This document shows positions 1 to 16,178 of a DNA stretch of 64,000 nucleotides, one piece after another. A model generated the notes under the pieces. That model was not told where the DNA came from. It worked only from the letters and a program-made list of their open reading frames with translations, and made no database searches. The stretch covers positions 62,001 to 126,000 of the forward strand of contig NZ_SETE01000003.1 in the NCBI RefSeq assembly GCF_004152935.1, in the 5' to 3' direction. Within the stretch, counting starts at the first letter, position 1. Every line of letters starts with the position of its first letter. The DNA is from Brumimicrobium glaciale. GTDB lineage: Bacteria; Bacteroidota; Bacteroidia; Flavobacteriales_D; Crocinitomicaceae. The position numbers and the translations under genes were made by a program.

Positions 1-157
1 TGATTGAGCCTGTCGAAAGCGTCGAAAGCAACAATTGAAACAAATAATTAGGTTTTATTTTAGAATCGTCAATTTCCGCTATCGTTTCTAATTAGGATTT
101 AGTTGATGAGTATATACAAATTGAAAACACAAATTAAAACTATTAAAACATATAGAC

Positions 158-370
158 ATGGAAGAACTTAGATTTAAAACAACTTTGAAATGTGGAGGAT
201 GTGAGGAAAAAATCACTCCAGGAATGAATGCAATTAATGAAGTTGAAGAATGGGATGTTGACCTAGACAGTGCAGATAAGATTTTAACTGTTGTAGTAAC
301 AAAAAACGTAGAAGATCAGATTATTGAAGTCGTAGAAAAAGTTGGTTTTGAAATCACAAAAATAGATTAA
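158..370 (+). CDS. heavy-metal-associated (HMA) domain protein
   Basis: A 70-residue cytoplasmic protein that is a single HMA fold. The metal-binding loop is seen near residues 11-15 as LKCGGC, the CxxC pair typical of copper chaperones and of the N-terminal domains of copper-exporting P-type ATPases. Length matches the CopZ/Atx1 class. By family it should bind Cu(I) or another soft metal and hand it to a transporter or enzyme. No partner gene is visible because the window begins just upstream. A nearly perfect hairpin follows the stop and separates it from the convergent secreted-protein gene. The metal is not determined by the sequence. Confidence 0.85.
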   Translation: MEELRFKTTLKCGGCEEKITPGMNAINEVEEWDVDLDSADKILTVVVTKNVEDQIIEVVEKVGFEITKID

Positions 371-371
371 T

Positions 372-419
372 TGATTTTTTGTGGATATGTTGAATTGCAA
401 CATATCCACAAAAAAATCA
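372..419. terminator. bidirectional hairpin terminator between convergent genes
   Basis: The arms TGATTTTTTGTGGATATGTT (from 372) and its complement ending at 419 form a stem of about 20 bp with a loop of about 5 nt and one bulged base. T-runs lie on the outer side on both strands, so it can end transcription of the HMA gene and of the minus-strand gene whose stop codon lies at 417-419. Confidence 0.8.
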
Positions 420-1784
420 TTGCTTTACAATTTTATATACATTCTGTTCCTCGTTATTAAAAACCCGCAAAGTGTAAATTCCTTTTTCGAGGTGATCGAT
501 CATTAACGTTACTTCTTCGGCAGTACTCAATGCTTTATTTTCTGACAATACGATTCGTCCATTCATGTCTAGCATTTCTATTTTTAAAGCTGAAGTATTT
601 GAAGAATTTATAATTTTCAAATGATTTGACGCTGGATTTGGTACAACGGAGATATTAACAAAATCATTTTTATCAATACTCACATCGGGCCACCAGCCAC
701 ACTCCATCACTGAAACTCCTACTGCAGTAGAGTCGTTAGGACAAAGAGAGTTGCTAACCACGTATGTATATCCATAATAGCCTGGAATTGATGGTGCGGC
801 TGTCATTGAGCCATTTAATGGATCTCCAGCATAGTCAAACCAAGTCCCATTTAAATCAACATTACCCAACAGTAAGTCAAATAGTGGAAATACTTCTCCT
901 TCACAAACAGCATAATCATTAACAGCTGTTCCTGAAGAATTATAATCAAGTACATTAAGTATTGCTACAGTTGTATCGTAACAAACCAATCGTTCAACAT
1001 AATAGGCTTCATAAGTTCCCGGAATAAGTATGGAGACATTTAAAATCGAATCTTGCGTCAAAAATCCTGAATGATATGGAAAGGCCCAATAGCCTCCGCC
1101 GTTTGGTTTTACAATAATATTACCGTTAAGATTAATTGATCCAACATCAAAACAAACATCTATTGACCCATCTTGACCCGTTGAACTTATACAATCGTCA
1201 ATTCTTACTTCATCTAATAAGATATCATTGTAAATTGGTTGATTAGTTGTTAGCGTTTGATTTACCATGAAACGAACTTGAATTGTTTGATTCATAAATG
1301 CATTCAAATCATAATTTACAAAAATCCAATCTGACGAGTCTCCTTTTAAAGTATCAAGATTGGTCCAAGTTGTGCCATCAAAAACATCAATTATTAATGG
1401 AGTATTGTCTCCTGGGAAATCGGTGTTATTACTGAACCATTCGAATGATAAATAAGGTGTTGTTAGTTGAGAAAGATCAATTTCTGGAGAAATCAAAATC
1501 ATACTGTCGGGATTCGGATTTGAACCATCTGATTTGGCAAATTCACCAGCGACTTTTCCATTGTTGGCAGCTCCGTAATCTCCTTGGTCATTGAAAATCC
1601 AGAAATTATCTGGACTTGTACTTGGGTCTGAAGAAAGATTCTCCCAACATAGTGGTTCTGTGCCATTATTAAATGATTCATAAAATGGAGCTGGAATTAC
1701 TGGACACAATGTTTGAGCATTGAGATTTAGTCCCAAAATTAGAATAATCAACAAAAGTAGGCTATTGCATGTACTAGTTTTCAT
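417..1784 (-). CDS. T9SS-secreted protein, anchor-J/MAM-like (paralog 1)
   Basis: A 455-residue exported protein. A signal peptide (residues 1-24, hydrophobic LLLLIILILGLNLNA) is followed by a jelly-roll domain of the 'choice-of-anchor J'/MAM-like type (about 28-195, with a tract reading LSFEWFSNN). A Cys-containing spacer (about 200-370) comes next, then a C-terminal T9SS type A sorting domain (about 378-455, with PNPASNHLKI, DMNGR, KGIYTLRV and terminal KIVKQ). Such proteins cross the outer membrane by the Por/T9SS machinery and are released or surface-anchored. It is most like the neighbour at 1893-3263; both ends are nearly identical while the middle differs. Ligand unknown; an adhesive or matrix role is inferred from the domains. 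Confidence 0.85.
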   Translation of the reverse strand: MKTSTCNSLLLLIILILGLNLNAQTLCPVIPAPFYESFNNGTEPLCWENLSSDPSTSPDNFWIFNDQGDYGAANNGKVAGEFAKSDGSNPNPDSMILISPEIDLSQLTTPYLSFEWFSNNTDFPGDNTPLIIDVFDGTTWTNLDTLKGDSSDWIFVNYDLNAFMNQTIQVRFMVNQTLTTNQPIYNDILLDEVRIDDCISSTGQDGSIDVCFDVGSINLNGNIIVKPNGGGYWAFPYHSGFLTQDSILNVSILIPGTYEAYYVERLVCYDTTVAILNVLDYNSSGTAVNDYAVCEGEVFPLFDLLLGNVDLNGTWFDYAGDPLNGSMTAAPSIPGYYGYTYVVSNSLCPNDSTAVGVSVMECGWWPDVSIDKNDFVNISVVPNPASNHLKIINSSNTSALKIEMLDMNGRIVLSENKALSTAEEVTLMIDHLEKGIYTLRVFNNEEQNVYKIVKQ

Positions 1785-1810
1785 AGTGTTAGTTGTTTAT
1801 CATAAGAAAT

Positions 1811-1840
1811 AAAAATTACGGAGAAAATATGAAAACACAA
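1811..1840 (-). promoter_or_regulatory. Bacteroidota-type promoter of paralog 1
   Basis: On the minus strand TTG (1838-1840) is followed after 19 nt by TAATTTTT (1811-1818), close to the Bacteroidota consensus TTTG-N19/21-TAnnTTTG. It lies 27 nt before the start codon. The same layout sits before the neighbouring paralog. Confidence 0.5.
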
Positions 1841-1892
1841 TAAATTGAAGCGACGCAATTAATTTCGGTAATAAATTGCATTTAAACATTTT

Positions 1893-3263
1893 CTATTGCT
1901 TCACAATTTTATATACATTCTGTCCTTCGTTATTAAAAATCCGTAAGGTGTAAATCCCTTTTTCGAGGTGATCAATCATTAGCGTTACTTCTTCGGCAGT
2001 ACTCAATGCTTTATTTTCTGACAATACATTTCGTCCATTCATGTCTAGCATTTCTATTTTTAAAGCTGACGTATTTGAAGAATTTATAATTTTTAAATGA
2101 TTTGATGCTGGGTTTGGGGAGATTGAAATGTTTTGGAAATCTTGTTTTGTTGTTGAAACTGGAGGTTCCCACCAGTCACAATCTGAAGCTACACTCACAT
2201 TTACAACTGCTGAATCATCTGGACAGTTGGCGTTAAGAATCACATAGGTGTAATCATAGATGCCAGGTATTGTTTGGGCATTCGGTAAAGAATTAGGCAA
2301 TGCAGTTCCTGTAAAATCATACCATGTACCGCCAGGTGAAACAAACCCTGACAACACACTAAATAATGGTATGGGTTCATTAGGACAAACCGTAGTTTCA
2401 CCATCAATACCGGCTGATTCATAATTATAAAAAGAAATGGTCGCTACGGTTGTGTCATAACAAACCAACCTTTCAATATAATACACTTCGTAAGTTGCTC
2501 CGACAGTCAAACTTGAAACATTAAAGTGTGCACCACTAATTAAACCAGGCTGACTTGGATAAGACCAATAACCACCACCATTTGGTTTCACGATGATATT
2601 GTCGTTTAAATCAACCACTCCATTTAATATACAAAATGTTTTGGAACCATCTTGACCAGTTGTGCTCACGCAATCATCAATTCTTACCTCATCTAATAAA
2701 ATATCATTATAAATCGGGTGATTTGTTGTCAATGTTTGATTCACCATAAAACGCACTTGAATGGTTTGATTCATGAAAGCATTCAAATCATAATTTTGGA
2801 ATCTCCATGCAGAACTATCTCCTGACAAAGTATCTAAATTCGTCCAAGCAGTTCCGTCAAAAATATCAATTATTAAAGGAGTATTGTCTGCTGGGAAATC
2901 TGTGTTATTACTGAACCATTCGAATGATAAATAAGGTGTTGTTAATGAAGAAAGATCAATTTCTGGAGAAATCAAAATCATACTGTCGGGATTTGGATTT
3001 GAACCATCTGCTTTGGCAAATTTACCAGCGATTTTTCCATTGTTAGTGGCTCCATAATCTCCTTGGTCATTAAAATTCCAAAAATTGTCGGGACTTGTAC
3101 TTGGGTCAGAAGAAAGATTCTCCCAACACAGTGGTTCTGTGCCGCTATTAAATGATTCATAAAATGGAGCTGGAATTACTGGACACAATGTTTGAGCGTT
3201 CAGATTTAGTCCAAAAGTTAGAATAATCAATAAAATCAGACTATTAAATATGTTAGTTTTCAT
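1893..3263 (-). CDS. T9SS-secreted protein, anchor-J/MAM-like (paralog 2)
   Basis: A 456-residue near-twin of the protein at 417-1784: signal peptide (1-24), anchor-J/MAM-like domain (about 28-195), variable central spacer (about 205-375) and T9SS type A sorting domain (about 380-456, ending KIVKQ). Over the first 200 and last 75 residues the two differ at only scattered positions, while the centre (beginning DGSKTFCILNG) is clearly diverged. This mosaic pattern suggests recent tandem duplication with gene conversion at the ends or diversifying change in the middle. Exported and probably surface-exposed; no enzymatic motif is visible. Confidence 0.85.
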   Translation of the reverse strand: MKTNIFNSLILLIILTFGLNLNAQTLCPVIPAPFYESFNSGTEPLCWENLSSDPSTSPDNFWNFNDQGDYGATNNGKIAGKFAKADGSNPNPDSMILISPEIDLSSLTTPYLSFEWFSNNTDFPADNTPLIIDIFDGTAWTNLDTLSGDSSAWRFQNYDLNAFMNQTIQVRFMVNQTLTTNHPIYNDILLDEVRIDDCVSTTGQDGSKTFCILNGVVDLNDNIIVKPNGGGYWSYPSQPGLISGAHFNVSSLTVGATYEVYYIERLVCYDTTVATISFYNYESAGIDGETTVCPNEPIPLFSVLSGFVSPGGTWYDFTGTALPNSLPNAQTIPGIYDYTYVILNANCPDDSAVVNVSVASDCDWWEPPVSTTKQDFQNISISPNPASNHLKIINSSNTSALKIEMLDMNGRNVLSENKALSTAEEVTLMIDHLEKGIYTLRIFNNEGQNVYKIVKQ

Positions 3264-3289
3264 AGAGTTAGTTGTAAATCATAAGAGAT

Positions 3290-3319
3290 TAAATTTACGA
3301 AGAAAAAATGAAAACACAA
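3290..3319 (-). promoter_or_regulatory. Bacteroidota-type promoter of paralog 2
   Basis: On the minus strand TTG (3317-3319), 19 nt, then TAAATTTA (3290-3297). Spacing and flanking sequence match the promoter of paralog 1, so the promoter was copied along with the gene. Confidence 0.45.
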
Positions 3320-3387
3320 TAGAATTTAATTCAAGAGCAAGAAAAGAGTAGGAAATTTGGGGGTTAGATTCTAAGACAGTGGTAAAG

Positions 3388-3418
3388 AAAAAGCGCCTCT
3401 CAAATGAGAGGCGCTTCT
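3388..3418 (-). terminator. rho-independent terminator after paralog 3
   Basis: A GC-rich perfect stem AGCGCCTCTCA / TGAGAGGCGCT (3392-3402 and 3405-3415) is followed on the minus strand by a T-run. It lies about 60 nt past the stop of the gene at 3478-5616. A near copy of this hairpin follows the paralog at 10571. Confidence 0.85.
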
Positions 3419-3477
3419 AAAATAATTTTAACGAGGCAACAAATAGTACGGACGCTATAAATTACGTCGGCACCATT

Positions 3478-5616
3478 TTATTGCTTCACAATCTTGAAAG
3501 TTTTTTGACCATCACTATTGTATACTCTAAGTGTATAGATTCCTTTTTCAAGGTGATCGATTGCTAAAGTAGCTTCCGAAGCATTGTTCAATGCTTTGTT
3601 TTCAATTAATACTGTTCTTCCATTCATATCAAACATCTCTACTCTTAAAGCAGCGGCGCTAGACGGATTAACGATATTCAATTGACTTGTTGCAGGGTTT
3701 GGATATACTGAAATATCAGTAAATAACTCTTCACCTAGCGATAAGAAATCACAAGTATCTAAAACTTTAATAGTAACGATTGAAGAATCGGCAGGACAAA
3801 CACCATTATTAGCTACATAGAAGTAGTTGTAATTACCTGGAATCGGTTCTGCTTTCGGTTGTGAGTTTGGAAGCATAGTATTTGTAAAATCAAACCAATC
3901 ACCACTTGTATCAACATTTCCTGTAAGGGCACCAAACAAATTGATTGGCTCATTCTTACAAACTGTGTCTGCGCCATCAAAACCAGCAGATGAAGGTTTA
4001 AATACGTTGATTGTTGCTGTAGTTGTATCATAACATACGTAGCGCTCAACATAAAATATTTCATAAGAACCTGCTGGTAAATATGTTACCCCAAGAATAG
4101 AGTCTTGGGATATGAAACTTTGTTGACTTGGGAAAGACCATTCACCTCCGCCATTTGGCTTAACAATGATGTTATCATTTAAGTTAACATTACTGTCTAA
4201 TCTACAGATATCAAATGATCCATCAACACCACCAAGACTGATACAGTCATCAATTCTTACATCATCTAATAAAATATCATTGTAATAAGAGAAACTTGTA
4301 GTGAGTGTTTTGTTAACCATGAAACGCACTTGAATAATATTACCTATAAAAGGGCTCAAATCATAATTTACAAACTCCCAGTCTGGACTATCTCCTCTCA
4401 AAGTGTCCAATAACGTCCATGAAGTCCCATCATACACTTCAATAATCAACGGAACATTATCTCCAGGGTTATTCGTATTGTTACTGAACCACTCAAAAGA
4501 TAAATAAGGAGTTGCTAATTGTGAAATATCAATCTGTGGAGTAATCAACATCACACTATCACCATAAGGTGAATTTCCATCAACTTTTACAAATTCACCA
4601 GCATTTCTTCCATTGTTAGCAGCAGCATAATCTCCTTGGTCATTAAAGTTCCAGAAATTATTTACACTAGTGCTTGGATCAGCAGAAAGATTATCCCAAC
4701 ATTGTGGTTGTGATGCATTGTTAAATCCTTCATAAAAAGGAGCTATCATAGGTGGTGACTGTACAAAAATCGCTGTTGAAGAATCTAAAAGACTGCTATT
4801 TGAACATGTCACTTCACATTTGTAATGGGTACTCGCTGTCTGAGTTATTGTCTCATTTGGTGATGTTGCTCCAGCAATGGGTGTCCAAGGACCAGTAGCT
4901 GTTGGTGCAGATAACCATTGGTAAGTAATTCCTGCTGCAGGAGTACTTCCAGAAAGCGAAAGACCAAAAGCTCCGCAAGCTAAAGAAGGAGCAATTGCAG
5001 TTCCACCACTTGGTGTACCTGTACAAGGAGCCGGAGAGGTATAATACATCTCAACTCTACTAATCGCACCAGAACCTGGCTCCCAAGAATAATTTGGAGC
5101 GGGTCCAGCTGTAATATTCCCTTGGTAAATCAATCGGTTCAAAGTTAAAGACTGCCCCAATATAGTACTTGGATAAGGACCTCCTGTCACTGAATAACTA
5201 TTACTTGTCCCAGCTTGACCCAAAATTCCAATAATATCTCCCTGATTTACCAATATGTTCACACTTTGAATAACATTATTGGGTGCTCCTTGGATATATG
5301 AAAGCGTAGTAAAATTAGTTGAACTTGTTGCATAAGTCACAGGAGTAGCATCATTAATTTTCATTATATGAATATTTTGTGTTCCTGGTCCAGCATCTGC
5401 AGGAACTCTAACTCCTGTAATGATAAAAGAAGTAGGGGCAGTAAACCAATAACCTCTAACGCTTCCTGAATAAGTATTACCAAAATTAGGTAAGGGCATC
5501 ATGGTTTGTGCCGTAGTTTGTGCATGAGTAGCAAACACCAATAATACCACGAACATATAACGCCAAACAGCATAATTCTTATTATGGTTTTTTAAGCAAT
5601 TGTGTAAAATTTTCAT
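3478..5616 (-). CDS. T9SS-secreted protein with Ig-like and anchor-J modules (paralog 3)
   Basis: A 712-residue exported protein. An N-terminal hydrophobic segment (about 18-37) is followed by a beta-rich domain of about 160 residues that I do not recognise (about 40-195) and an Ig/PKD-like module (about 197-285, with YQWLSAPTATGPW and YKCEV). Then comes the family module: anchor-J/MAM-like domain (about 290-460), spacer with a conserved VKPNGGGEWSFP stretch, and T9SS type A sorting domain (about 635-712). The last 420 residues are nearly identical to those of the next paralog, so the array shares a common C-terminal cassette fitted with different front ends. Surface or secreted; binding partner unknown. 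Confidence 0.85.
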   Translation of the reverse strand: MKILHNCLKNHNKNYAVWRYMFVVLLVFATHAQTTAQTMMPLPNFGNTYSGSVRGYWFTAPTSFIITGVRVPADAGPGTQNIHIMKINDATPVTYATSSTNFTTLSYIQGAPNNVIQSVNILVNQGDIIGILGQAGTSNSYSVTGGPYPSTILGQSLTLNRLIYQGNITAGPAPNYSWEPGSGAISRVEMYYTSPAPCTGTPSGGTAIAPSLACGAFGLSLSGSTPAAGITYQWLSAPTATGPWTPIAGATSPNETITQTASTHYKCEVTCSNSSLLDSSTAIFVQSPPMIAPFYEGFNNASQPQCWDNLSADPSTSVNNFWNFNDQGDYAAANNGRNAGEFVKVDGNSPYGDSVMLITPQIDISQLATPYLSFEWFSNNTNNPGDNVPLIIEVYDGTSWTLLDTLRGDSPDWEFVNYDLSPFIGNIIQVRFMVNKTLTTSFSYYNDILLDDVRIDDCISLGGVDGSFDICRLDSNVNLNDNIIVKPNGGGEWSFPSQQSFISQDSILGVTYLPAGSYEIFYVERYVCYDTTTATINVFKPSSAGFDGADTVCKNEPINLFGALTGNVDTSGDWFDFTNTMLPNSQPKAEPIPGNYNYFYVANNGVCPADSSIVTIKVLDTCDFLSLGEELFTDISVYPNPATSQLNIVNPSSAAALRVEMFDMNGRTVLIENKALNNASEATLAIDHLEKGIYTLRVYNSDGQKTFKIVKQ

Positions 5617-5983
5617 AAATAAATAGTATTAAATTAAGGTAGCTTCTAACTTATATATATTTAAACAAAGAGTAGAAGCTCCTTAGACTCTTTGAAGTCT
5701 TTTCATTATTTTATAAAGATTAATAATACACCCAAACTATAGTTAACTTTTTTTTAATTTCAATCACCAAAAGAGGCATATTTAATAAATTTATCGATCC
5801 TTTGGAGTCCATAAACCTAAAAGCTTTGTTTTGGTATATTTAAATTATAATTCGTTAAATATTAATTCAACCATCTGATTGTTCGTGTAGATACAGTGTG
5901 TCTCATTTGTAATTAGTGTTTTGTAAATAAATAGTGTTTATATCCATAAAGATATCGTGCAAATAATCAAAGACATCTATAAC

Positions 5984-6015
5984 CAAAAGTACAATTTTTT
6001 CTTCATTAGAACAAA
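5984..6015 (-). promoter_or_regulatory. consensus Bacteroidota promoter with a long leader
   Basis: On the minus strand TTTG (6012-6015), 20 nt, then TACTTTTG (5984-5991): an exact match to TTTG-N19/21-TAnnTTTG. It points at the gene starting at 5616, leaving about 360 nt of untranslated RNA, or it drives a separate small RNA. Confidence 0.55.
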
Positions 6016-6470
6016 TTGAGGAAAAACTGAATTTTGGAATCCTGAAATCCTTGTTATCAAGGCAGTATGATTATTAACCGGTAAAAGACGCATTAACTTT
6101 TTACAGCTGAAATCCTTCTATAAGAGGTATGAATCAGGGTTCCGATTTTTTTTGAACAGAACTTCGATTTTATTTCCTTTAATGAAGCGTTGATAAATTT
6201 GAATGTCAAAGTGACAATGGCTTTTACCTTTGACCCCTGTTATATTTCTAAATCTGGAAAAAATACATTTGGAACTACTTACTCTTGGAGTAGCTGTGCT
6301 GGAAAAACCATATGGGGATAGGAACTATGTGGTTTGGTAATATTGGATTTGTAAAGATCAACTCCTGACATTTAAAAACTTCACAAGCTTTGTATTTTTC
6401 TTATCAAAGACTTAAAAATATTTAGTTTTCTTGTGTACACTAATTATAAGTTAATGAAAAATAAAACATA

Positions 6471-6505
6471 AAAAAATAGAGATACAAATTCATGTATCTC
6501 TATTT
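6471..6505 (-). terminator. terminator after paralog 4
   Basis: A perfect 11-bp stem ATAGAGATACA / TGTATCTCTAT (6476-6486 and 6493-6503) with a 6-nt loop. On the minus strand it is followed by a T-run (plus-strand A-run 6471-6476). It sits about 20 nt past the stop of the gene at 6527. Confidence 0.75.
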
Positions 6506-6526
6506 CTATTTTAAGTAATTAATATT

Positions 6527-9500
6527 TTACTGTTTCACAACTTTGAAAGTCTTCTGACCATCGTTGTTGTATACTCTAAGTGTATAGATTCCTTTTTCAA
6601 GGTGATCGATTGCTAAAGTAGCTTCCGAAGCATTGTTCAATGCTTTGTTTTCAATTAATACTGTTCTTCCATTCATGTCAAACATCTCTACTCTTAAAGC
6701 AGCTGTGTTAGACGGATTCACGATATTTAATTGACTTGTTGCAGGGTTTGGATATACTGAGATATCAGTAAATAACTCTTCACCTAGCGCTAAGAAATCA
6801 CAAGAATCTAAAACCTTAATAGTAACGATTGAAGAATCTGCAGGACAAACACCATTATTAGCTACATAGAAGTAGTTGTAATTACCTGGAATCGGTTCTG
6901 CCTTTGGTTGAGAATTAGGAAGTGCTGAATTTGTAAAATCATACCACTGTCCACCAAAATCAACATTTCCGCCAATTGCAGCAAACAAATCGATTGGTTC
7001 ATTCTTACAAACTGTGTCTGCACCATCTGTACCAGCAGATGAAGGTCCGAATACATTGATTGTTGCTGTAGTTGTATCATAACAAACATAACGCTCAACA
7101 TAATATACCTCATAAGTACCAGCTGGTAAATAAGTTACCCCAAAGATTGAATCTTGCGTTAAGAAAGCAGGCTGGCTTGGGAAAGACCATTCTCCTCCAC
7201 CGTTTGGCTTAACAATAATGTTATCATTTACGTTAACATTACTGTCTAATCTACAGATATCAAATGATCCATCAACACCACCGAGACTGATACAGTCAGC
7301 AACTCTAAACTCATCCAATAAAATATCATTGTAGTAAGAGAAGCTTGTAGTGAGTGTTTTGTTAACCATAAAACGCACTTGAATAACATTACCTATGAAA
7401 GCGCTTAAATCATAATTTACAAATTCCCAATCTGGACTATCACCTCTTAAGGTATCCAATAACGTCCAAGACGTTCCATCATTTACTTCAATAATCAAAG
7501 GAACATTATCTCCAGGGTTGTTTGTATTGTTACTGAACCACTCAAAAGATAAGTAAGGAGTTGCTAATTGTGAAATATCAATTTGCGGAGAAATCAACAT
7601 TACACTATCGCCATAAGGTGAATTTCCATCAACCTTTGTAAATTCTCCAGCATTTCTTCCATTGTTTGCAGCAGCATAATCTCCTTGGTCATTAAAGTTC
7701 CAGAAATTATTTACACTAGTGCTTGTATTTGAAGACAAATTCTCCCAACATTGTGGTTGAACAGCATTGTTAAATCCTTCATAAAAAGGAGCTACAGCAA
7801 TTCCACAATCAGTGTAGAAAGTCAAAGGACCTCTCCAAGCACTTGAATCTCCTGCTCCACAATCAGACCTCACATAGAAGTCATAGTTTGCGCTTGGGTT
7901 CAATCCTGTAACTGTAAATGGATTTGTGTTGGCCACAACTTCAGTACCATTCCCTTGGATATATCCGTTTAAACCATATTCAATAATCCATGATGAAGCT
8001 GAATTTAATTCAGTCCAACTTAATTCTGCAGTTGTTGTAGAAACCGTTATAGTATCTAAATCTAAAGGAGGCAAGCATGATGGAGGAGTAATTACATTAA
8101 TAATATAATCCTCAGCTTCGGCACTGTTTCCGCTACATGGTAGTGGATTTGCAGTAAGGTCATCTGCAATTACACGCATTCTGTGTTGTCCTACTGTAGC
8201 TCCTAATGGAATTGCGAAGGATCCTGCTGCTGGAGTATTTGTATATCCCGCAGAAGAATAAGCTTGTTCTGATACATCAAATATAAAGTCATCATTCCAA
8301 TCTACATAAATAACAATTCCATAAGAGAATGTGCTACTTGTTTCGATAGAGAAATCGATTGTCTGTGTTTCATAAGCATCCATTACTATTGTAGTAAAAT
8401 CTGAATAACCTGGACTTGTTGTACCAGGCCCTGACGCAGGGTTACTAATATCTACAATTGCTCCATTTGTAATAAAAGAAGTAATGAATTTAGGACTCCC
8501 ATTGGTTACAGTATAATCACAATACTGATTAGAGAAAAGATAAGGTCCAGCCCAAGCACTTATATCTCCACCTCCACAATCTGTTTGCACGTAGAATTCA
8601 TAATCTGTATTTGGTGTAAGTGTGATATTATAAGGATTGGTGACACCATTTTGAAGATTACCTGCAGCAGATCCAGGTGTAAACCCAGCAACACCCCATT
8701 CAAGATTCCAAATAGAAGAACCGTTGTTTTCTGTCCACGTTAAGTCAGCTGATGTTCCTGTAATATTAGTTGCAAGAAGTCCAGTTGGTTTTAAACAAGT
8801 TGGGGCTTCAAAAATCGAAACATCATCAATAGCAATATCGTCATAAAAGTCAGTACCATTTATTTCGTCTACAACAAATCTAGCCTGAATATCACCAGTA
8901 ATTGTCAAGTTATTTAAATACACTTCAATTTCTTCCCAACTATTATTCATGGTATTTGAATTGCTTGTAAAGACGCCTATATTCCATGCAGCACCATCCC
9001 AAACGTCAACTGAAAAGTTTACATTTGTATAGCCTTCGTTGTCACTTATTAAGTAAAAGGTCAACATTGGAACATTTAATCCCGTAACATCAACAAAAGG
9101 AGTAATTAAAGAAGTACCTATTGAATTTGGGGATGAATCGTCAACCCATGCAAAATAACCACCACTTGCTGTTGTACCATTTAAAGTACCATTAGTTCCA
9201 ATGTGATTAAATCCACCTGTATTGTCAAACTTCCAATCTTCACCATTCGACAAACCTTGTTCCCAACATGTAGGAAGAGCGCCTCCATTTTCAAAATCTG
9301 AAATCCAAGGAGCTACCTCTGTTCCACAAAGTGTCATAACACTCAATGGACCTAAAACATAATCATCATTTCCACTGTTACAGTTTTCTGTGATGATTAC
9401 ATGGTAAACTGAATTTGCTGTTAAACCAGTTATGTTTTCAGTATTTGAAACTCCTGTAATTAAACCAGAAGAACTAAATCCTGTACCTGGTGTAAATCCT

Positions 9501-10326
9501 GCCGGGCCATACTCAATTTCATAATCATCATTTCCTGAACCGTGATCCCAAGTTACATCAAAACCAGTTGAGGTAACATTAGTGAATGTAGTATTTGAAA
9601 TAACACCACAAACTAAACCTAAAGGAAGTGATTGATTGTAAGTTGAGCTAATTTCACCAGCAGTTAAAGCGCGGTTGTATAAACGAAATTCATCCATCGC
9701 ACCATCTACACCGTTACTGCTAGAGTTACCCTGAGTTCCTACACCAAATCCATTACCTGTGAAACTTAAATTAGTTGCTTGGGTTAAAGAATTTACTGAA
9801 ACTCCATTTACATAAGCTTCACTAAGACCAGTTGACGCAGTATAAACAACTGTAATAATATTTGGCACAGTTGTTCCCAAAACGTTAGTTATTTGAAGAT
9901 CTGTCCATCCAGTTCCTCTCACAACAAGTCCGTTAGCTGGAGCTACTCCACCACCAAAACATCTAAAACCTGATGCTGTTGCGTCTCCAAAAAGATAACT
10001 TGTTCCAGTAGGCTGATTCATATCAAGCCAAAAAGAAATTGTCCAATCTCCTGTTAAAGCAGTCGGCCAATTGGTATTAATATTGTTGGCTGTCCCTGAT
10101 GTCCCAGTTCCAACAAGTGCAGATCCAAACTGCCCAACACCCGCTTGAGTGAAATTACCATTTATTGCTCCAGCTCCCGGGGTACCAGGATTAGCAAAAT
10201 TTTGAACTGTTGTTCCTGACTGGTCGAATTTATAATATAAGACCTCTGGAAGGTTGTTTGTCCAAATGCATGTAAAGCAAAAAGCATTGTGACAAACCCC
10301 ATAAATTTAATGTAGTTTGTTTTCAT
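6527..10326 (-). CDS. T9SS-secreted LamG/FN3/GEVED protein, frameshifted near the N-terminus (paralog 4)
   Basis: The largest paralog. The signal peptide (MKTNYIKF..LHAFGQ, start codon at 10324-10326) is in one frame and the mature protein in another. The long frame is open up to about 10258 and reads LPEVLYYKFDQSG, so the first in-frame ATG at 10019-10021 falls inside a LamG-like domain. Adding one base in the CAAACAACC tract (about 10252-10260) would join them. From the internal ATG the order is: rest of LamG (to 130), FN3 (137-228), anchor-J (235-408), FN3 (411-495), GEVED (500-655), FN3 (660-745), anchor-J (750-920), spacer, T9SS sorting domain (1085-1164). As written the product would lack a signal peptide. 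It may be a sequencing error, a pseudogene or a phase switch. Confidence 0.8.
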
Positions 10327-10503
10327 AATAATAGTTTTTTGCAAGATAGGGTAAATAAATAAATTGATAAAGTAAATTACTCTAAAATCAGAATATAAAT
10401 TTTCAGTACACCTCTATAAACCAGTGACAACGGGCGATAAAGTCATGATAAACAATTCCGTCTCTATCAAGTTTCCGCTTACTATGCACGCACTATTTAA
10501 TGC

Positions 10504-10532
10504 AAAAAACGCCTCCCAAATGAGAGGCGTTT
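10504..10532 (-). terminator. terminator after paralog 5
   Basis: A stem AAACGCCTC / GAGGCGTTT around CCAAAT, followed on the minus strand by a T-run, about 40 nt past the stop of the gene at 10571. It resembles the hairpin at 3392-3415 (shared GCCTC..AAATGAGAGGCG), which suggests it was copied with the gene. Confidence 0.8.
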
Positions 10533-10570
10533 CTTGTTAATTTAACAACATCTAAAGATTGCTTAAACTA

Positions 10571-13363
10571 TTATTGTTTTACAATTTTGAAGGTTTTTTG
10601 TCCATCGTTATTGTAAACTCTTAAAGTATAAATTCCTTTCTCAAGGTGATCAATTACTAAAGTAGCAACAGATGCATTACTTAATATTTTGTTTTCAACC
10701 AATACAACACGTCCATTCATGTCTAGCATCTCTACTTTTAAAGAAGCTGTGTTAGATGGGTTAGCTATATTCAATTGACTTGATGTTGGATTAGGATATA
10801 CTGAAATATCAGTAAACATCTCTTCTGCAACAGACAAAAAATCACAATCTGGTCTTACTCCTACCTCTACAGTTGCTGTATCCGCTGGACAAACACCATT
10901 ATTGGCAATATAAGTAAAGTTATATTGACCTGGGATATTTGCTGCTTTTGGCTGAGAGTTTGGAAGCGGTGTATTCGTAAAATCAAACCACTGTCCACCC
11001 ATATCTATGTTACCTGATAATGCTTCAAAAAGATTAATTGGTTCATTTTTACAAACAGAAAGTGATCCATCACTACCTGCAGAAGAACTTCCAAATACAT
11101 TGATTGTTGCGAAAGTCGTATCATAACACACCGTTCTTTCAACATAGAAAACATCGTAAGTACCTGTTGGTAAATAAGTCACTTCTAGAATTGAATCTTG
11201 GCTAAGGAAATTTGGCTGTCCAGGGAACGACCATTCACCTCCACCGTTTGGTTTAACTATAATGTTGTTGTTTAAGTCAACAGTATTGTCTAACCTACAA
11301 ACGTCTAATATACCGTCAACACCACCAAGATCGCTACAGTCATCAATTCTAACTTCATCCAGTAAAATGTCGTTGTAGTAAGAATAACTTGCAGTAACTG
11401 ATTTATTAACCATGAAACGTATTTGTACTAAATTGTTTGAGTATGCACTTAGGTCATAATTAACAAACTCCCAATTAGGACTATCACCTTTAAGTGTATC
11501 AATAAAATTCCAGTTGTTACCATCGAACAACTCAATAATTAAAGGAACGTTATCCCCTGGGTTATTCGTATTGTTACTGAACCATTCAAAAGATAAAAAT
11601 GGATTATTCAATTGAGAGATATCAATTTGAGGAGTAACTAACATTACACTATCAGCGTATGGTGAGTTCCCATCAACTTTGGTAAATTCTCCAGCATTTC
11701 TTCCATTATTTGCTGCTCCGAAATCTCCTTGGTCATTAAAGTTCCATGTGTTATTTACACTAGTACTCACTGTAGATGATGTATTATCCCAACACTGTGG
11801 TTGAACAGCATTGTTGAATCCTTCGTAATAAGGTGCAACAGCAATTCCACAAGCTGTATAAACAGAGAAAGGTCCTCTAAAAGCACTTAAATCTCCATTT
11901 CCACAATTAGATTGCACATAGAAATCATATTGCATACTTGGATTTAAACCTATAATTGTAAAAGGGTTACTTGTAGCAGCTGCCATTGTTCCGTTACCCG
12001 GAGTAAATCCACTTACACCATACTCTATATTCCAAGCAGTAGAACCGTTTAATTCATTCCACATTAATTCAACAGAGTTTGTAGTTGTGCTTACTGTATC
12101 AATATCTAATACAGGAAGACAGGATGGAGGCGAAACTATTTCTAAAGTATAATCTTCAGCTTCTGCACTACTTCCTGAACATGCACTAGGTGTACCTCCT
12201 AAATAATCAGAAACTACTCTCATTCTGTATTGACCAACTGGGGTTCCGGCTGGAATCATTACTGAACCAGAAGTAGGCATAGCAGTGTATCCTGAAGATG
12301 AGTAAACTTTTTCTGCTGGACTAAAAGCAAAATCATTGTTTAAGTCAACAAAAATAGAAGTACCATACGTTGAAGTATTACTTGCTTCGATTGTAAAATC
12401 AATAATTTGTGTTTCATAAGCTTGTAAAACAATTGTTGAGAAATCAGAATAACCAGAAGTAGTTATTCCAGCTCCAGAGCTTAAGTTACTAATATTCTGA
12501 ACTGCACCAATTGTTGTAAAAGAACTGATATGTTGAGGAGAAGAACTTGAAATTGTGAATGCACAATAATCATTAGAGAAGAAGAAAGGACCAGCCCATC
12601 CACTTAGGTCACCATTTCCACAGTCAGATTGAACGTAAAATTCATAATCCGTCATTGGTGTAACTGTAAAAGTGTAAGGATTATTAGCCACTCCATTTAC
12701 TGTAGTTCCGTTACCAGGTAAAAATCCGGCTGCACCATATTCTATATTCCAAGATGTAGCTGAGTTAATTTCAGTCCATCCAATCTCTGCAGAATTAGAA
12801 GTTAAACCTGAAGTATAAATGTTTTGTGGAGGTAAACAAGACGGAGCAGCAACTATTTCGATTGTATAATCCTCTGCTTCAGCATCAGACTGCCCACAAG
12901 GCCCAGGAGTTCCACCTCCTAAATATGCAGCAATAACTCTCATTCTGTACTGTCCCATCGCCGTTGCGGCAGGAACAGTAAATGAATTAGACAGTGGTAA
13001 TGATGTATACCCTGTTGTTCCATAAACTTTTTCAGCAGGATCAAAAGTAAAATCATTATTCCAATCAATAAAAATTGACACTCCATAAGTAGAAGTGTTA
13101 CTTGCTTCAATGGTAAAATCGACTGTTTGGGTCTCGTAAGACTGTAAAACAGTTGAAGTGAAGTCAGAATAGCCTGATGTTGTAGTGCCTTGACCTGATC
13201 CTATGTTATTAATATTCGTAACAGCTCCTGTCGTAACAAAGTTATTAATATGTTTAGGAGAACTTGATGTTATTATGTAATCACAATATGTTTGCGCATT
13301 AAGATTTGAGCCAAATGTAAAAGCTGTAAAAAGCATCAAACCTTTTAGTAAATTTTTCTTCAT
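10571..13363 (-). CDS. T9SS-secreted GEVED/FN3/anchor-J protein (paralog 5)
   Basis: A 930-residue exported protein. Signal peptide (1-24, ending FGSNLNAQT), GEVED domain (about 26-175, with VDFTIEASN, IFIDWNNDF and AEAEDYTIEIV), FN3 (178-262), second GEVED (266-415), FN3 (420-505), anchor-J/MAM-like domain (508-690), family spacer (VKPNGGGEWSFPG) and T9SS type A sorting domain (852-930). The two GEVED-FN3 pairs are internal repeats of each other. GEVED and FN3 modules are common in large secreted proteins of Bacteroidota, often beside adhesins or proteases, but no catalytic domain is seen here. It is the first gene of the five-gene array in the direction of transcription. Confidence 0.87.
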   Translation of the reverse strand: MKKNLLKGLMLFTAFTFGSNLNAQTYCDYIITSSSPKHINNFVTTGAVTNINNIGSGQGTTTSGYSDFTSTVLQSYETQTVDFTIEASNTSTYGVSIFIDWNNDFTFDPAEKVYGTTGYTSLPLSNSFTVPAATAMGQYRMRVIAAYLGGGTPGPCGQSDAEAEDYTIEIVAAPSCLPPQNIYTSGLTSNSAEIGWTEINSATSWNIEYGAAGFLPGNGTTVNGVANNPYTFTVTPMTDYEFYVQSDCGNGDLSGWAGPFFFSNDYCAFTISSSSPQHISSFTTIGAVQNISNLSSGAGITTSGYSDFSTIVLQAYETQIIDFTIEASNTSTYGTSIFVDLNNDFAFSPAEKVYSSSGYTAMPTSGSVMIPAGTPVGQYRMRVVSDYLGGTPSACSGSSAEAEDYTLEIVSPPSCLPVLDIDTVSTTTNSVELMWNELNGSTAWNIEYGVSGFTPGNGTMAAATSNPFTIIGLNPSMQYDFYVQSNCGNGDLSAFRGPFSVYTACGIAVAPYYEGFNNAVQPQCWDNTSSTVSTSVNNTWNFNDQGDFGAANNGRNAGEFTKVDGNSPYADSVMLVTPQIDISQLNNPFLSFEWFSNNTNNPGDNVPLIIELFDGNNWNFIDTLKGDSPNWEFVNYDLSAYSNNLVQIRFMVNKSVTASYSYYNDILLDEVRIDDCSDLGGVDGILDVCRLDNTVDLNNNIIVKPNGGGEWSFPGQPNFLSQDSILEVTYLPTGTYDVFYVERTVCYDTTFATINVFGSSSAGSDGSLSVCKNEPINLFEALSGNIDMGGQWFDFTNTPLPNSQPKAANIPGQYNFTYIANNGVCPADTATVEVGVRPDCDFLSVAEEMFTDISVYPNPTSSQLNIANPSNTASLKVEMLDMNGRVVLVENKILSNASVATLVIDHLEKGIYTLRVYNNDGQKTFKIVKQ

Positions 13364-13394
13364 GTATTTTAGTATATAGTTTAATAATTGAACC

Positions 13395-13422
13395 CAAACA
13401 TAGCCCTAAATCCGAATTTAGG
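13395..13422 (-). promoter_or_regulatory. -7 element and adjoining palindrome before paralog 5
   Basis: On the minus strand TATGTTTG (13395-13402) matches the TAnnTTTG -7 element. Directly upstream lies a near-perfect palindrome CCTAAATCCGAATTTAGG (13405-13422) in the -33/-7 spacer, a position where a repressor or activator could bind. The binding protein is unknown. Confidence 0.45.
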
Positions 13423-13649
13423 AGTTGAAAAAATGTTAAATATTTGGAAAAGATTTACACCTCTAAATGTTAAGTATAGCTGAGGACCTAGCGGTTTTAC
13501 ACAATCTTTTTATTACAGAATATCACCTCCAAATTAATAACCATTTGACAACATGATCAATAGAGGGTTAAAACGTTTTAAAACGCTATGGATGTTCTAA
13601 TGAAAATACTAAAATCAGAAAGAAGAAATATTTTAGTTTTATAAAAGCA

Positions 13650-13680
13650 AAAAAGGGAGCTCCGAAGAAACTCCCTTATT
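13650..13680 (-). terminator. terminator after the TonB-dependent receptor
   Basis: A stem AAGGGAG / CTCCCTT (13653-13659 and 13671-13677) followed on the minus strand by a six-T run, about 20 nt past the receptor stop. Confidence 0.75.
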
Positions 13681-13697
13681 CAATTGATTATTGTCTA

Positions 13698-16178
13698 TTA
13701 TAACTTCAATAACAAACGCAACATAATATTTCTTCCAGCTTGTGGATAGTAAAAATTCTCTTGTGTTCTGTCTCCACCTACTAAATAAGAAAAGGTGTAA
13801 CCATTGTTTTCGTACATTTCATTGAATAAATTATTGATTCGACCACCTATTGTGATTTCTTCGAAACCTAGAGCAGCAAAACTATAAGATAGATCTAAAT
13901 GACTTACGAAATAAGCATCCATAGAACGAGATTCATTTGATGTATTGTCAAGGAATTGTTTTCCAACGAATTTATTCATCAAGCTTATTCTTAATCCTTT
14001 TACTGGAGCGTAATTTAAAGCTAAACCTGTAATTATAGAAGGTGAAAATGCTAAATCTGTTGTTCCATATTCAATAACTGTTTGTGGAATTGTGTTGAAT
14101 GAAGCATCATAACTGTCCACATATTCCACAAAGTTTTTGATCTTGTTTTGACTCAATGAAAGATTAGCCGTAATACCTAATTTCTTCAGGATTTGATAAC
14201 CTCCTTCTAATTCTAATCCTAAACGGTAACTTTCGTCCACATTTGTTCTTGTGTAACCACCAACATCATTGATTTCTCCTGTTAAAACCAATTGATTATC
14301 ATACAACATATGGTAGATATTTGCATTTAAGAAAGCTTTCTTGTTTGTTAACCTGTAACCCGCTTCTAAATTGTATAAAACTTCAGCTGACGGTCTGTTG
14401 GCCAATGTTTTTTCACGGAAATCTTTTCTAACAGGTTCACGATTTGCAATTGCATAAGAAGCATAAACAGAGTTCTGTGCATTGAAACGGTAAGACAAAC
14501 CCGCTTTTGGATTAATAAAATTATAAAATACTCTTTGATCCAACTCAGCAATTTCTCCGTTAACTTCATCAATTCCTAAAAACTGATAATCGATGTGTCT
14601 GTATTGAGCATCAGCAAAAAACGTAAACTTCTTCCATTCATAACTTGCTTTAGCAAAGAGATTACCATCATATTTTGTGGATGTATTGTCGTAATATTTA
14701 TCTCCTTTTTTATTGTTCGGCATATATTCCGCCCAAATAACATCTCCAAAGTGATCTCCAACATACTTATTTAATCCTCCACCTAAAACAAGTTCAAGAC
14801 CTTTATTATTAGCATAATTGAAATTAAAAACTCCACCACCAAAATGATTATCTAACCACCTTCTTCTGATTAAATCCATTCTATCAATTGAATCACCATT
14901 CACAACGATAGGTGCATAACCATATTTAGAAAACTTATCATCGGTTTCATAATTTTCATAATATCCAAGACCTCTCGTATAATGTCCTGCAACTTTCATG
15001 TTCCAATTTTTGTTGAACTGATATGCATAATGCAATTGGTAATGATCTTGCTGATAATTGTCCGTTTCGTTTTCGTAGGTGTAAGCATTATAAGTTCTTC
15101 CAGAATTCAATAAGTTTTCCAAATCTGAATCAGACAAACCGTTGCGACCTGCGTAGTCAATCATGGCTTGTTCATCACCCTCTACTCTACTCTCAGGAGT
15201 TCCATACCAAGCTTGATATGTTTTTTCTTTCCCACTGAAGATATTTAATCTTAAAGTCGATTTTTTACCGTGATATGCTCCAGAAAGAAAATAAGATTTC
15301 AAATCTGCACTAGATCGGTCAATATAACCTTCAGATTTAATTCTCGAAAGTCGCGCATCAACTGTAAACTTGTTATTAATCATTCCTGTCCCTACGTTTA
15401 CAGAATTTCGGATGGTATTGAAAGAACCGCCAGAATTATCAATAACTGCGTAAGGTTTTTGCTTGAGTTTATTGGTTGCAATATTAATACTTGCACCAAA
15501 TGCTCCAGCACCGTTAGAAGATGTTCCCACCCCACGTTGAACTTGCATGCTTTCAATTGAAGAGGAAAAGTCGGGCATATTCACCCAGAAAACTCCTTGT
15601 GATTCTCCATCGTTCATTGGAATTCCATCTACCGTTACGTTGGTTCTTGTTGGATCTACTCCCCGAATTCTAAATCCAGTGTAACCAACTCCAGCACCTG
15701 CGTCTGATGTTACAACAGTTGATGGCATTGACGATAACAAATATGGCAAATCTTGACCATAATTTTGCTTTTCGATGTCTTCTGCACTAATATTTGTATA
15801 AGTTGTCGGCGTTTTTTTATTTGCCCTAACTGCACGCACATCAATTCCTTCTTGCATAAAGAAAGAAGGCTTCATAGAAAAGTTAACCACTTGATTTTTG
15901 TCCAACACGATGGTTTGAGACAATGTTTCATACCCAAATAAACTTGCTTTCAGTTCGTAGGTACCATTTTTAAGATTTTTGATGACAAAATCGCCATCTG
16001 ATTGAGTAATTGCTCCGGAATTCTGTCCAACAACGAAAACGGTTGCACCAGTAAGTGCTTCACCGACATCATTTTGGACTTTACCAGAGATTTGTAATTG
16101 TGCGATTGCACTTGATGACAGCAATAAAGCTGCTGTCAAAGCTTTCATAACATTTCTTGTTTTCATGTTGTAAAACAT
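13698..16178 (-). CDS. TonB-dependent outer-membrane receptor, probably for thiamine
   Basis: An 826-residue receptor. Several Met codons lie at the front; MKTRNV (16166) or MKAL gives a clean signal peptide ending SSSAIAQ. Next come a CarboxypepD_reg-like beta-sandwich (about 30-110, ISGKVQNDVGEALTGATVFV), a plug domain (about 125-240, with LPYLLSSMPSTVVTSDAGAG and TVDGIPMNDGESQGVFW) and a 22-strand-type barrel ending in RNIMLRLLLKL. Energised by TonB-ExbBD, it would pull a scarce ligand across the outer membrane. The TPP riboswitch in its leader points to thiamine or a precursor (known for TPP-controlled TonB receptors in Bacteroidota; substrate here inferred). No inner-membrane thiamine transporter is adjacent. 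It is a single-gene transcript with its own terminator. Confidence 0.9.
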   Translation of the reverse strand: MFYNMKTRNVMKALTAALLLSSSAIAQLQISGKVQNDVGEALTGATVFVVGQNSGAITQSDGDFVIKNLKNGTYELKASLFGYETLSQTIVLDKNQVVNFSMKPSFFMQEGIDVRAVRANKKTPTTYTNISAEDIEKQNYGQDLPYLLSSMPSTVVTSDAGAGVGYTGFRIRGVDPTRTNVTVDGIPMNDGESQGVFWVNMPDFSSSIESMQVQRGVGTSSNGAGAFGASINIATNKLKQKPYAVIDNSGGSFNTIRNSVNVGTGMINNKFTVDARLSRIKSEGYIDRSSADLKSYFLSGAYHGKKSTLRLNIFSGKEKTYQAWYGTPESRVEGDEQAMIDYAGRNGLSDSDLENLLNSGRTYNAYTYENETDNYQQDHYQLHYAYQFNKNWNMKVAGHYTRGLGYYENYETDDKFSKYGYAPIVVNGDSIDRMDLIRRRWLDNHFGGGVFNFNYANNKGLELVLGGGLNKYVGDHFGDVIWAEYMPNNKKGDKYYDNTSTKYDGNLFAKASYEWKKFTFFADAQYRHIDYQFLGIDEVNGEIAELDQRVFYNFINPKAGLSYRFNAQNSVYASYAIANREPVRKDFREKTLANRPSAEVLYNLEAGYRLTNKKAFLNANIYHMLYDNQLVLTGEINDVGGYTRTNVDESYRLGLELEGGYQILKKLGITANLSLSQNKIKNFVEYVDSYDASFNTIPQTVIEYGTTDLAFSPSIITGLALNYAPVKGLRISLMNKFVGKQFLDNTSNESRSMDAYFVSHLDLSYSFAALGFEEITIGGRINNLFNEMYENNGYTFSYLVGGDRTQENFYYPQAGRNIMLRLLLKL

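What the first reader, a model, noticed from the sequence alone, without database searches (positions are those of the whole stretch)
417..13363. Five-gene tandem array of T9SS-secreted paralogs built from swapped modules
All five genes point the same way and share a C-terminal cassette (anchor-J domain, VKPNGGG spacer, T9SS sorting domain) with different N-terminal modules (none, unknown domain plus Ig-like, LamG/FN3/anchor-J, GEVED/FN3 pairs). Genes 1 and 2 are near-identical at both ends but diverged in the middle; genes 3 and 4 share about 420 nearly identical residues. Promoters and terminators were copied too. This looks like an evolving surface-protein repertoire shaped by duplication and recombination.
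Basis: partly seen in the sequence, partly recalled or inferred. Interest (0 to 1): 0.75.

Follow-up and report, generated by a model that had tools for sequence, protein, structure and literature searches.

The report
Surface-protein gene array homogenised by domain
Five neighbouring genes for probably secreted surface proteins in a marine-type bacterium share and overwrite particular protein domains with each other while other domains stay distinct, a bacterial example of gene conversion reshaping a surface-protein family.

Summary
Five same-strand genes (417-13363) share a J-Ig-T9SS-tail cassette under different N-terminal modules, in a Brumimicrobium-like genome. The array lies between a TonB-receptor-like and a P-type-ATPase-like gene. 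Three related species also hold family genes there; in a fourth (G001) the flanks are about 375 bp apart.

Recombination is well supported. Of 31 complete cassettes, >=95% tracts of >=150 nt occur in 9 of 65 same-genome pairs and 0 of 400 cross-genome pairs. Genes 1 and 2 have Ig modules orthologous to those of B. oceani o1 and o2, but J is alike within each genome (AU tests). A second array about 500 kb or more away shares J with gene 4. Gene 4 is a module mosaic whose signal peptide is out of frame as assembled. B. oceani carries a rearrangement with a breakpoint in the array.

Closest precedents: H. pylori homA/homB and babA/babB, and P. gingivalis gingipain adhesin domains. A new member of a known kind, seen at domain resolution.

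The parts
417..1784 (-). g1: signal peptide (by eye) + J + Ig pair + T9SS tail, 455 aa
1191..1784 (-). g1 signal + J, alike with g2
   Evidence: J 88% nt; signal+J pS 0.37 vs 0.65 to the B. oceani counterpart
675..1190 (-). g1 Ig pair, nearest to B. oceani o1 (75% aa in the alignment), unlike g2 (56%)
1893..3263 (-). g2: same architecture as g1, 456 aa
2148..2669 (-). g2 Ig pair, groups with o2/a1/q1 of other species
   Evidence: 98.2/99
1785..1849 (-). leader/promoter region of g1, 56 of 65 nt as the one upstream of g2 (3264-3329)
3478..5616 (-). g3: N-domain without Pfam match + Ig_7-like (below cut-off) + cassette, 712 aa
   Evidence: N-domain matches only B. oceani o3 among the family proteins compared
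3475..4745 (-). g3 cassette, 89.7% nt identical to g4 over 1271 nt
3388..3418 (-). terminator-like hairpin of g3, 28 of 31 nt as g5's
6527..10021 (-). g4: LamG-FN3-J(MAM)-FN3-GEVED-FN3-J-Ig-tail, 1164 aa read from an internal ATG; module mosaic
6524..7794 (-). g4 cassette tract shared with g3
7304..7813 (-). g4 cassette J, 90% nt identical to J of array-2 genes bA/bB, with >=95% sub-tracts of 162 and 240 nt
10022..10326 (-). 5' end of g4: signal-peptide-like start and LamG in different frames
10571..13363 (-). g5: GEVED-FN3-GEVED-FN3-J-Ig-tail, 930 aa; orthologue in B. oceani (89%) and B. aurantiacum (74%)
10504..10534 (-). terminator-like hairpin of g5
13698..16178 (-). TonB-receptor-like gene (name recalled, no family search), border of the array in the four array genomes

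Best explanation
The array is a tandem family of modular proteins with T9SS sorting tails, probably adhesin-like surface or secreted proteins, at a locus between a TonB-receptor-like and a P-type-ATPase-like gene. It evolves by three processes. (1) Duplication and joining of modules; g4 is a mosaic. (2) Homologous recombination within a genome that overwrites J, Ig or tail segments between neighbours and between two unlinked arrays (gene conversion). (3) Retention of gene-specific parts (most N-terminal modules; Ig modules of g1/g2) as orthologues across species. Shown: tail homology, location, mosaicism, tracts, tree conflict. Inferred: export and surface display, adhesin function, non-reciprocal homologous recombination as the agent, and why J is often the overwritten part (it recurs in many members, and it may be an interaction domain that works best when copies match).
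For: T9SS tails in 5 of 5; SprA in the genome, 2397 bits. Tracts >=95% and >=150 nt in 9 of 65 same-genome and 0 of 400 cross-genome pairs; nearest cassette in the same genome for J 18, Ig 16, tail 18 of 31, none of 2000 label shuffles as high. B. oceani o1/o2: signal+J without a difference over 191 codons, Ig 62% nt. bA/bB: 96-100% nt in eleven consecutive 40-codon windows, 28-86% before and 69-81% after; ocA/ocB: a different tract, again over J. AU tests: J rejects g1+o1 (3e-47), Ig rejects g1+g2 (4e-13) and o1+o2 (1e-5), tail rejects g1+o1 (0.004). g3's N-terminus is orthologous to o3 (73% aa), yet its cassette is at pS 0.23-0.31 to g4 and 0.55-0.69 to o3. g4's modules have different nearest relatives. 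Flanks about 375 bp apart in G001. B. oceani breakpoint in the array.
Against: Silent-site-only run tests are not significant for g1/g2 (p_global 0.50), g3/g4 (1.0) or o3/oX (0.99); all-site tests are (5e-4, 0.005, 0.014). Some cross-species runs also score: g2/o1 0.013 silent, g2/o2 0.047 all sites. Three of five cross-species pairs in the g1/g2 set are uneven too, more weakly. The AU tests do not reject trees without a g1+g2 clade for J or tail; g1 and g2 are not a clade in the J DNA tree but are in the protein J tree (97). g5/o5 show no recent conversion. Homogenisation is not confined to J. The nine tracts are not independent (bA, bB and g4 give three). Label shuffles ignore relatedness. 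Draft assemblies can merge near-identical repeats, which could inflate o1/o2 or ocA/ocB identity. Function rests on domains.
Confidence: 0.83

Rival explanations
1. Simple birth and death: g1/g2, g3/g4, bA/bB and ocA/ocB are recent independent duplicates in each species, without conversion.
For: Same-genome cassettes are often nearest; gene number and content differ between species. It remains possible for the G001 pair, which is 92-96% alike in all three domains.
Against: Diverged segments of the same pairs are orthologous across species (Ig of g1/o1 and g2/o2; N-termini of g3/o3 73% and bB/ocA 79% aa), so those genes pre-date the species split.
Confidence: 0.07
2. Purifying selection alone keeps J and tail alike while Ig diverges.
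For: In the g1/g2 set J is more conserved in protein than Ig.
Against: Synonymous differences also drop within a genome (signal+J pS 0.37 for g1/g2, 0.00 for o1/o2; 0.52-0.65 between species; tail 0.24 for g1/g2 but 0.59 for o1/o2, not reduced there), and sharp boundaries occur.
Confidence: 0.03
3. Programmed antigenic or phase variation, with a recombinase or silent cassettes.
For: Mosaic genes; out-of-frame 5' end of g4.
Against: All five genes face one way; no inverted repeats of >=40 nt were found in 1-14500 with a 14-nt seed. Recombinases and silent cassettes were not searched for, and strain data are lacking.
Confidence: 0.07

Closest known systems
Helicobacter pylori homA/homB and babA/babB outer-membrane protein gene pairs (PMC2795765, passages read; PMC3444412, search listing with start of abstract)
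   Same: Paralogues with a variable middle segment; the 3' segment is alike within a strain (concerted evolution), attributed to intragenomic conversion
   Different: There segment 1 of homA/homB diverges; another phylum and secretion route; here T9SS-tail modular proteins, more members, and exchange between two arrays
Porphyromonas gingivalis rgpA/kgp/hagA adhesin domains (PMC5266723, abstract and passages read)
   Same: [quoted passage not shown] domain rearrangement, with gene conversion proposed
   Different: Proteinases and a haemagglutinin compared among strains; here no catalytic domain above cut-off, a tandem array, and between-species evidence
Flavobacterium psychrophilum inversion flanked by a 10-kb inverted repeat with an adhesin and a PorP/SprF gene (PMC5808330, passages read)
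   Same: Chromosome rearrangement at T9SS-linked surface-protein genes
   Different: Inverted repeats between strains; here a breakpoint in a same-direction array, between species

Membership tests
T9SS type A cargo | C-terminal type A sorting domain above curated cut-off | tested here: met
   TIGR04183 44.6-57.5 bits vs 23; PF18962 49.7-56.5 vs 27, 5 of 5
T9SS type A cargo | N-terminal signal peptide | tested here: inconclusive
   Hydrophobic N-termini by eye in g1, g2, g3, g5; in g4 out of frame; no predictor run
T9SS type A cargo | T9SS machinery in the genome | tested here: met
   SprA, 2397 bits vs cut-off 200; other components not tested
T9SS type A cargo | T9SS-dependent export and tail removal | not testable with these tools
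   needs mutants
Choice-of-anchor J (NF038128) | score above cut-off 30 | tested here: not met
   24.9 bits in g1, not listed at E<=1 in g2-g5
MAM domain (PF00629) | score above cut-off 26.4 | tested here: inconclusive
   Met by g4's first J (43.0) and bB's internal J (64.1); not by the cassette J of g1-g5 or of the 15 cassettes of A1. Foldseek of a pLDDT 69.5 model lists the neuropilin MAM (rank 38, TMt 0.64) behind multidomain proteins with lower TM
Concerted evolution by gene conversion | paralogues closer than orthologues in segments, with tree conflict and tract boundaries | tested here: met
   contrary results given in the Against line
Antigenic/phase-variable array | variation among strains or within a culture | not testable with these tools
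   one genome per species held

The most novel reading that the evidence does not exclude
J acts as a genome-specific matching domain: a MAM-like module by which different T9SS surface proteins of one cell, or of sister cells, bind each other. Selection for matching drives its overwriting across both arrays, so each species carries its own J type while N-terminal and Ig binding modules stay distinct. This would be a surface self-association or kin-adhesion code kept by gene conversion.
Probability: 0.1. Interest if true: 0.8.

Novelty: new member of a known kind. Interest (0 to 1): 0.48.

Why it matters
This locus shows why: domains of one gene have different histories, so whole-gene orthology and annotation by best hit can fail. 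It also offers a natural test of which modules must match and which must differ.

Tried and rejected
Inverted-repeat switching: no inverted repeats of >=40 nt in 1-14500 with a 14-nt seed. g4 as a simple a2 x a4 fusion through J: its first J is 64-67% to an own array-2 gene and 36-37% to a4. J as the only homogenised domain: Ig and tail tracts also occur. Structure of whole g3: mean pLDDT 56.4, not used. VIA-align library not available. PDB sequence search: two matches, both to the tail region, 5jvk_A (2.5e-5) and 8glk_D (0.035). Literature: searches (5 papers, 2 of them then read in passages; 312 papers, 15 listed, none of those with T9SS; 1 paper; 4 listed) showed no direct report of this phenomenon in T9SS arrays; other listed papers were seen only as listings, and the library holds open-licence papers only. 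One search listed no hits for G003 and G004 although domain comparison gives 91% tails there, so that absence is not used. The blastn runs on the G014 array were empty; with other settings found 85-86% blocks. Rows dropped: of 60 genes with a domain hit, 59 with a tail hit, only the 31 with adjoining J, Ig and tail entered the trees and pair counts.
Full report
What is there. Five minus-strand ORFs fill 417-13363. In transcription order they are g5 (930 aa), g4 (1164), g3 (712), g2 (456) and g1 (455). Each ends in a T9SS type A tail above the curated cut-off, preceded by an Ig-like pair with VKPNGGG and a J domain. Ahead of that: g1 and g2 have only a signal peptide (by eye); g3 a domain without Pfam match plus an Ig_7-like domain below cut-off; g4 LamG-FN3-J-FN3-GEVED-FN3; g5 two GEVED-FN3 pairs. 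The NCBI choice-of-anchor J cut-off is not met; g4's first J meets Pfam MAM. A 15-row AlphaFold model of the g1 cassette (pLDDT 69.5, pTM 0.47) gave 234 PDB matches at E<=0.001. The top ranks are multidomain proteins with low TM-scores; the neuropilin-1 MAM domain is rank 38 with TMt 0.64, and a MAM-Ig module is rank 16 with TMt 0.38. A MAM-like J is therefore likely, not shown.

A flaw in g4. The listed start is internal. A signal-peptide-like frame begins at 10326 but does not run into LamG, which is open in another frame. An unbroken relative of this N-terminus exists in B. aurantiacum (a2). Sequencing error, true inactivation and use of another start cannot be told apart here.

Genome and place. 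The window is G000:C3:62001-126000. Relatives include B. oceani and B. aurantiacum; I identify G002 and G003 with them because contig lengths agree. The array lies between a TonB-receptor-like gene (13698-16178) and a P-type-ATPase-like gene left of the window (both names recalled). B. aurantiacum has five family genes between these flanks on one contig. G004 has family genes beside both flanks, across a contig break. B. oceani has them beside both flanks on two contigs. In G001 the two flanking genes are about 375 bp apart with no array. In G005-G008 the fetched stretches around the TonB-gene match show no gene matching g1-g5 at E<=1e-8; G009 had no TonB match at the threshold. A tree of rpoB, gyrA and the two flanking genes puts G001 outside the four array genomes (97.9/83; 88 from the flanking genes alone). 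The array may have formed here after that split; loss in G001 is not excluded.

Rearrangement. In B. oceani, beyond o3 come a 306-aa ORF without a match in the fetched C1 stretch and then genes that lie at C1:321-324 kb here; beyond o2 comes a split counterpart of the T9SS-tail gene at C1:312.6-315.3 kb. So both sides of the array break join material from one region of C1. The four ORFs between those places here were not traced in B. oceani. The unbroken order in B. aurantiacum suggests that B. oceani is derived.

Conversion between g1 and g2. Their Ig modules match B. oceani o1 and o2 respectively (75% and 69% aa, against 56% between g1 and g2 and 55% between o1 and o2). J is instead alike within each genome: 88% nt here, 100% in B. 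oceani. Synonymous differences agree: signal+J pS 0.37 and 0.00 within genomes, 0.52-0.65 between; the tail is reduced here (0.24) but not in B. oceani (0.59). AU tests reject g1+o1 for J and tail, and g1+g2 and o1+o2 for Ig; they do not reject trees without g1+g2 for J or tail. Segment tests on third positions give 0 of 200 shuffles for g1/g2 and o1/o2. Of five cross-species controls, three are also uneven but weaker, two are not. Silent-site run tests are not significant for g1/g2, and a few cross-species runs score as well. The J DNA tree does not join g1 and g2; the protein J tree does (97).

Conversion between g3 and g4, and between arrays. g3's N-terminus is orthologous to o3 (73% aa), but its cassette is far closer to g4. 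bA and bB lie in a second array on another contig, about 500 kb or more away if the chromosome is single (from contig positions). They share a segment of about 1.3-1.4 kb at 96-100% nt inside genes otherwise much more diverged; their B. oceani counterparts share a different tract, also over J. J of g4 is 90% identical to J of bA and bB, while bA and ocA J are 65%. Over the 31 complete cassettes of 9 genomes (of 59 tail-bearing genes in the fetched stretches), >=95% tracts of >=150 nt occur in 9 of 65 same-genome pairs and 0 of 400 others. Five of the nine lie mainly in J; the other four in Ig and/or tail. The nearest cassette is in the same genome for J 18, Ig 16 and tail 18 of 31; label shuffles average 4.3-4.4. 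These shuffles ignore relatedness, and the nine tracts are not all independent.

Module mosaic. g4's modules have different nearest relatives among the family proteins compared: LamG and FN3a B. aurantiacum a2 (67 and 74%, LamG with no other hit), J1 an own array-2 gene (64-66%, next 37%), FN3b array-2 genes (68-69%), GEVED and FN3c G004 and B. aurantiacum genes, cassette g3 (86-95%).

How it works. Shown: shared sorting tails, mosaic genes, genome-specific similarity of shared domains. Inferred: proteins are exported by the T9SS (SprA present) and act as adhesin-like surface or matrix proteins; repeated domains recombine; N-terminal and g1/g2 Ig modules are kept distinct, perhaps for different binding targets.

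Comparison. The pattern resembles concerted evolution of the 3' segment in H. pylori homA/homB and, as cited there, babA/babB (PMC2795765, passages), and domain rearrangement in P. gingivalis gingipain adhesin domains (PMC5266723, abstract and passages). An eight-gene array in another genus (G014) has two neighbour pairs 85-86% alike over 1.7-1.8 kb, so the mode may be common in the family. Literature searches showed no report of it for T9SS arrays in what was listed.

Limits. One genome per species, several draft assemblies, no strain comparison, no signal-peptide predictor; the run and segment tests are my own scripts, not GENECONV.

Noticed in passing
window 10022-10326: Signal-peptide-like start and LamG of g4 lie in different frames in this assembly.
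   Followed up: partly
L049:9385-13649, L050:13825-18732, L077:7651-17996: B. oceani rearrangement with a breakpoint between its g2- and g3-type genes; the partner place here lies beside another T9SS-tail gene, whose B. oceani copy is split into two ORFs.
   Followed up: partly
L045:6473-12998: Three tandem T9SS-tail genes with long blocks 88-92% identical between or within genes.
   Followed up: no
L049:7805-7906 and 10896-11002, L050:3410-3515, L086:4597-4689: About 100-nt intergenic repeat dispersed in B. oceani, two copies near the array.
   Followed up: no
L068:3755-5979: G005 P-type ATPase homologue is split over two ORFs.
   Followed up: no
L114/L115: Eight tandem genes of 1054-1189 aa in another genus of the family, with two neighbour pairs 85-86% alike.
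   Followed up: partly
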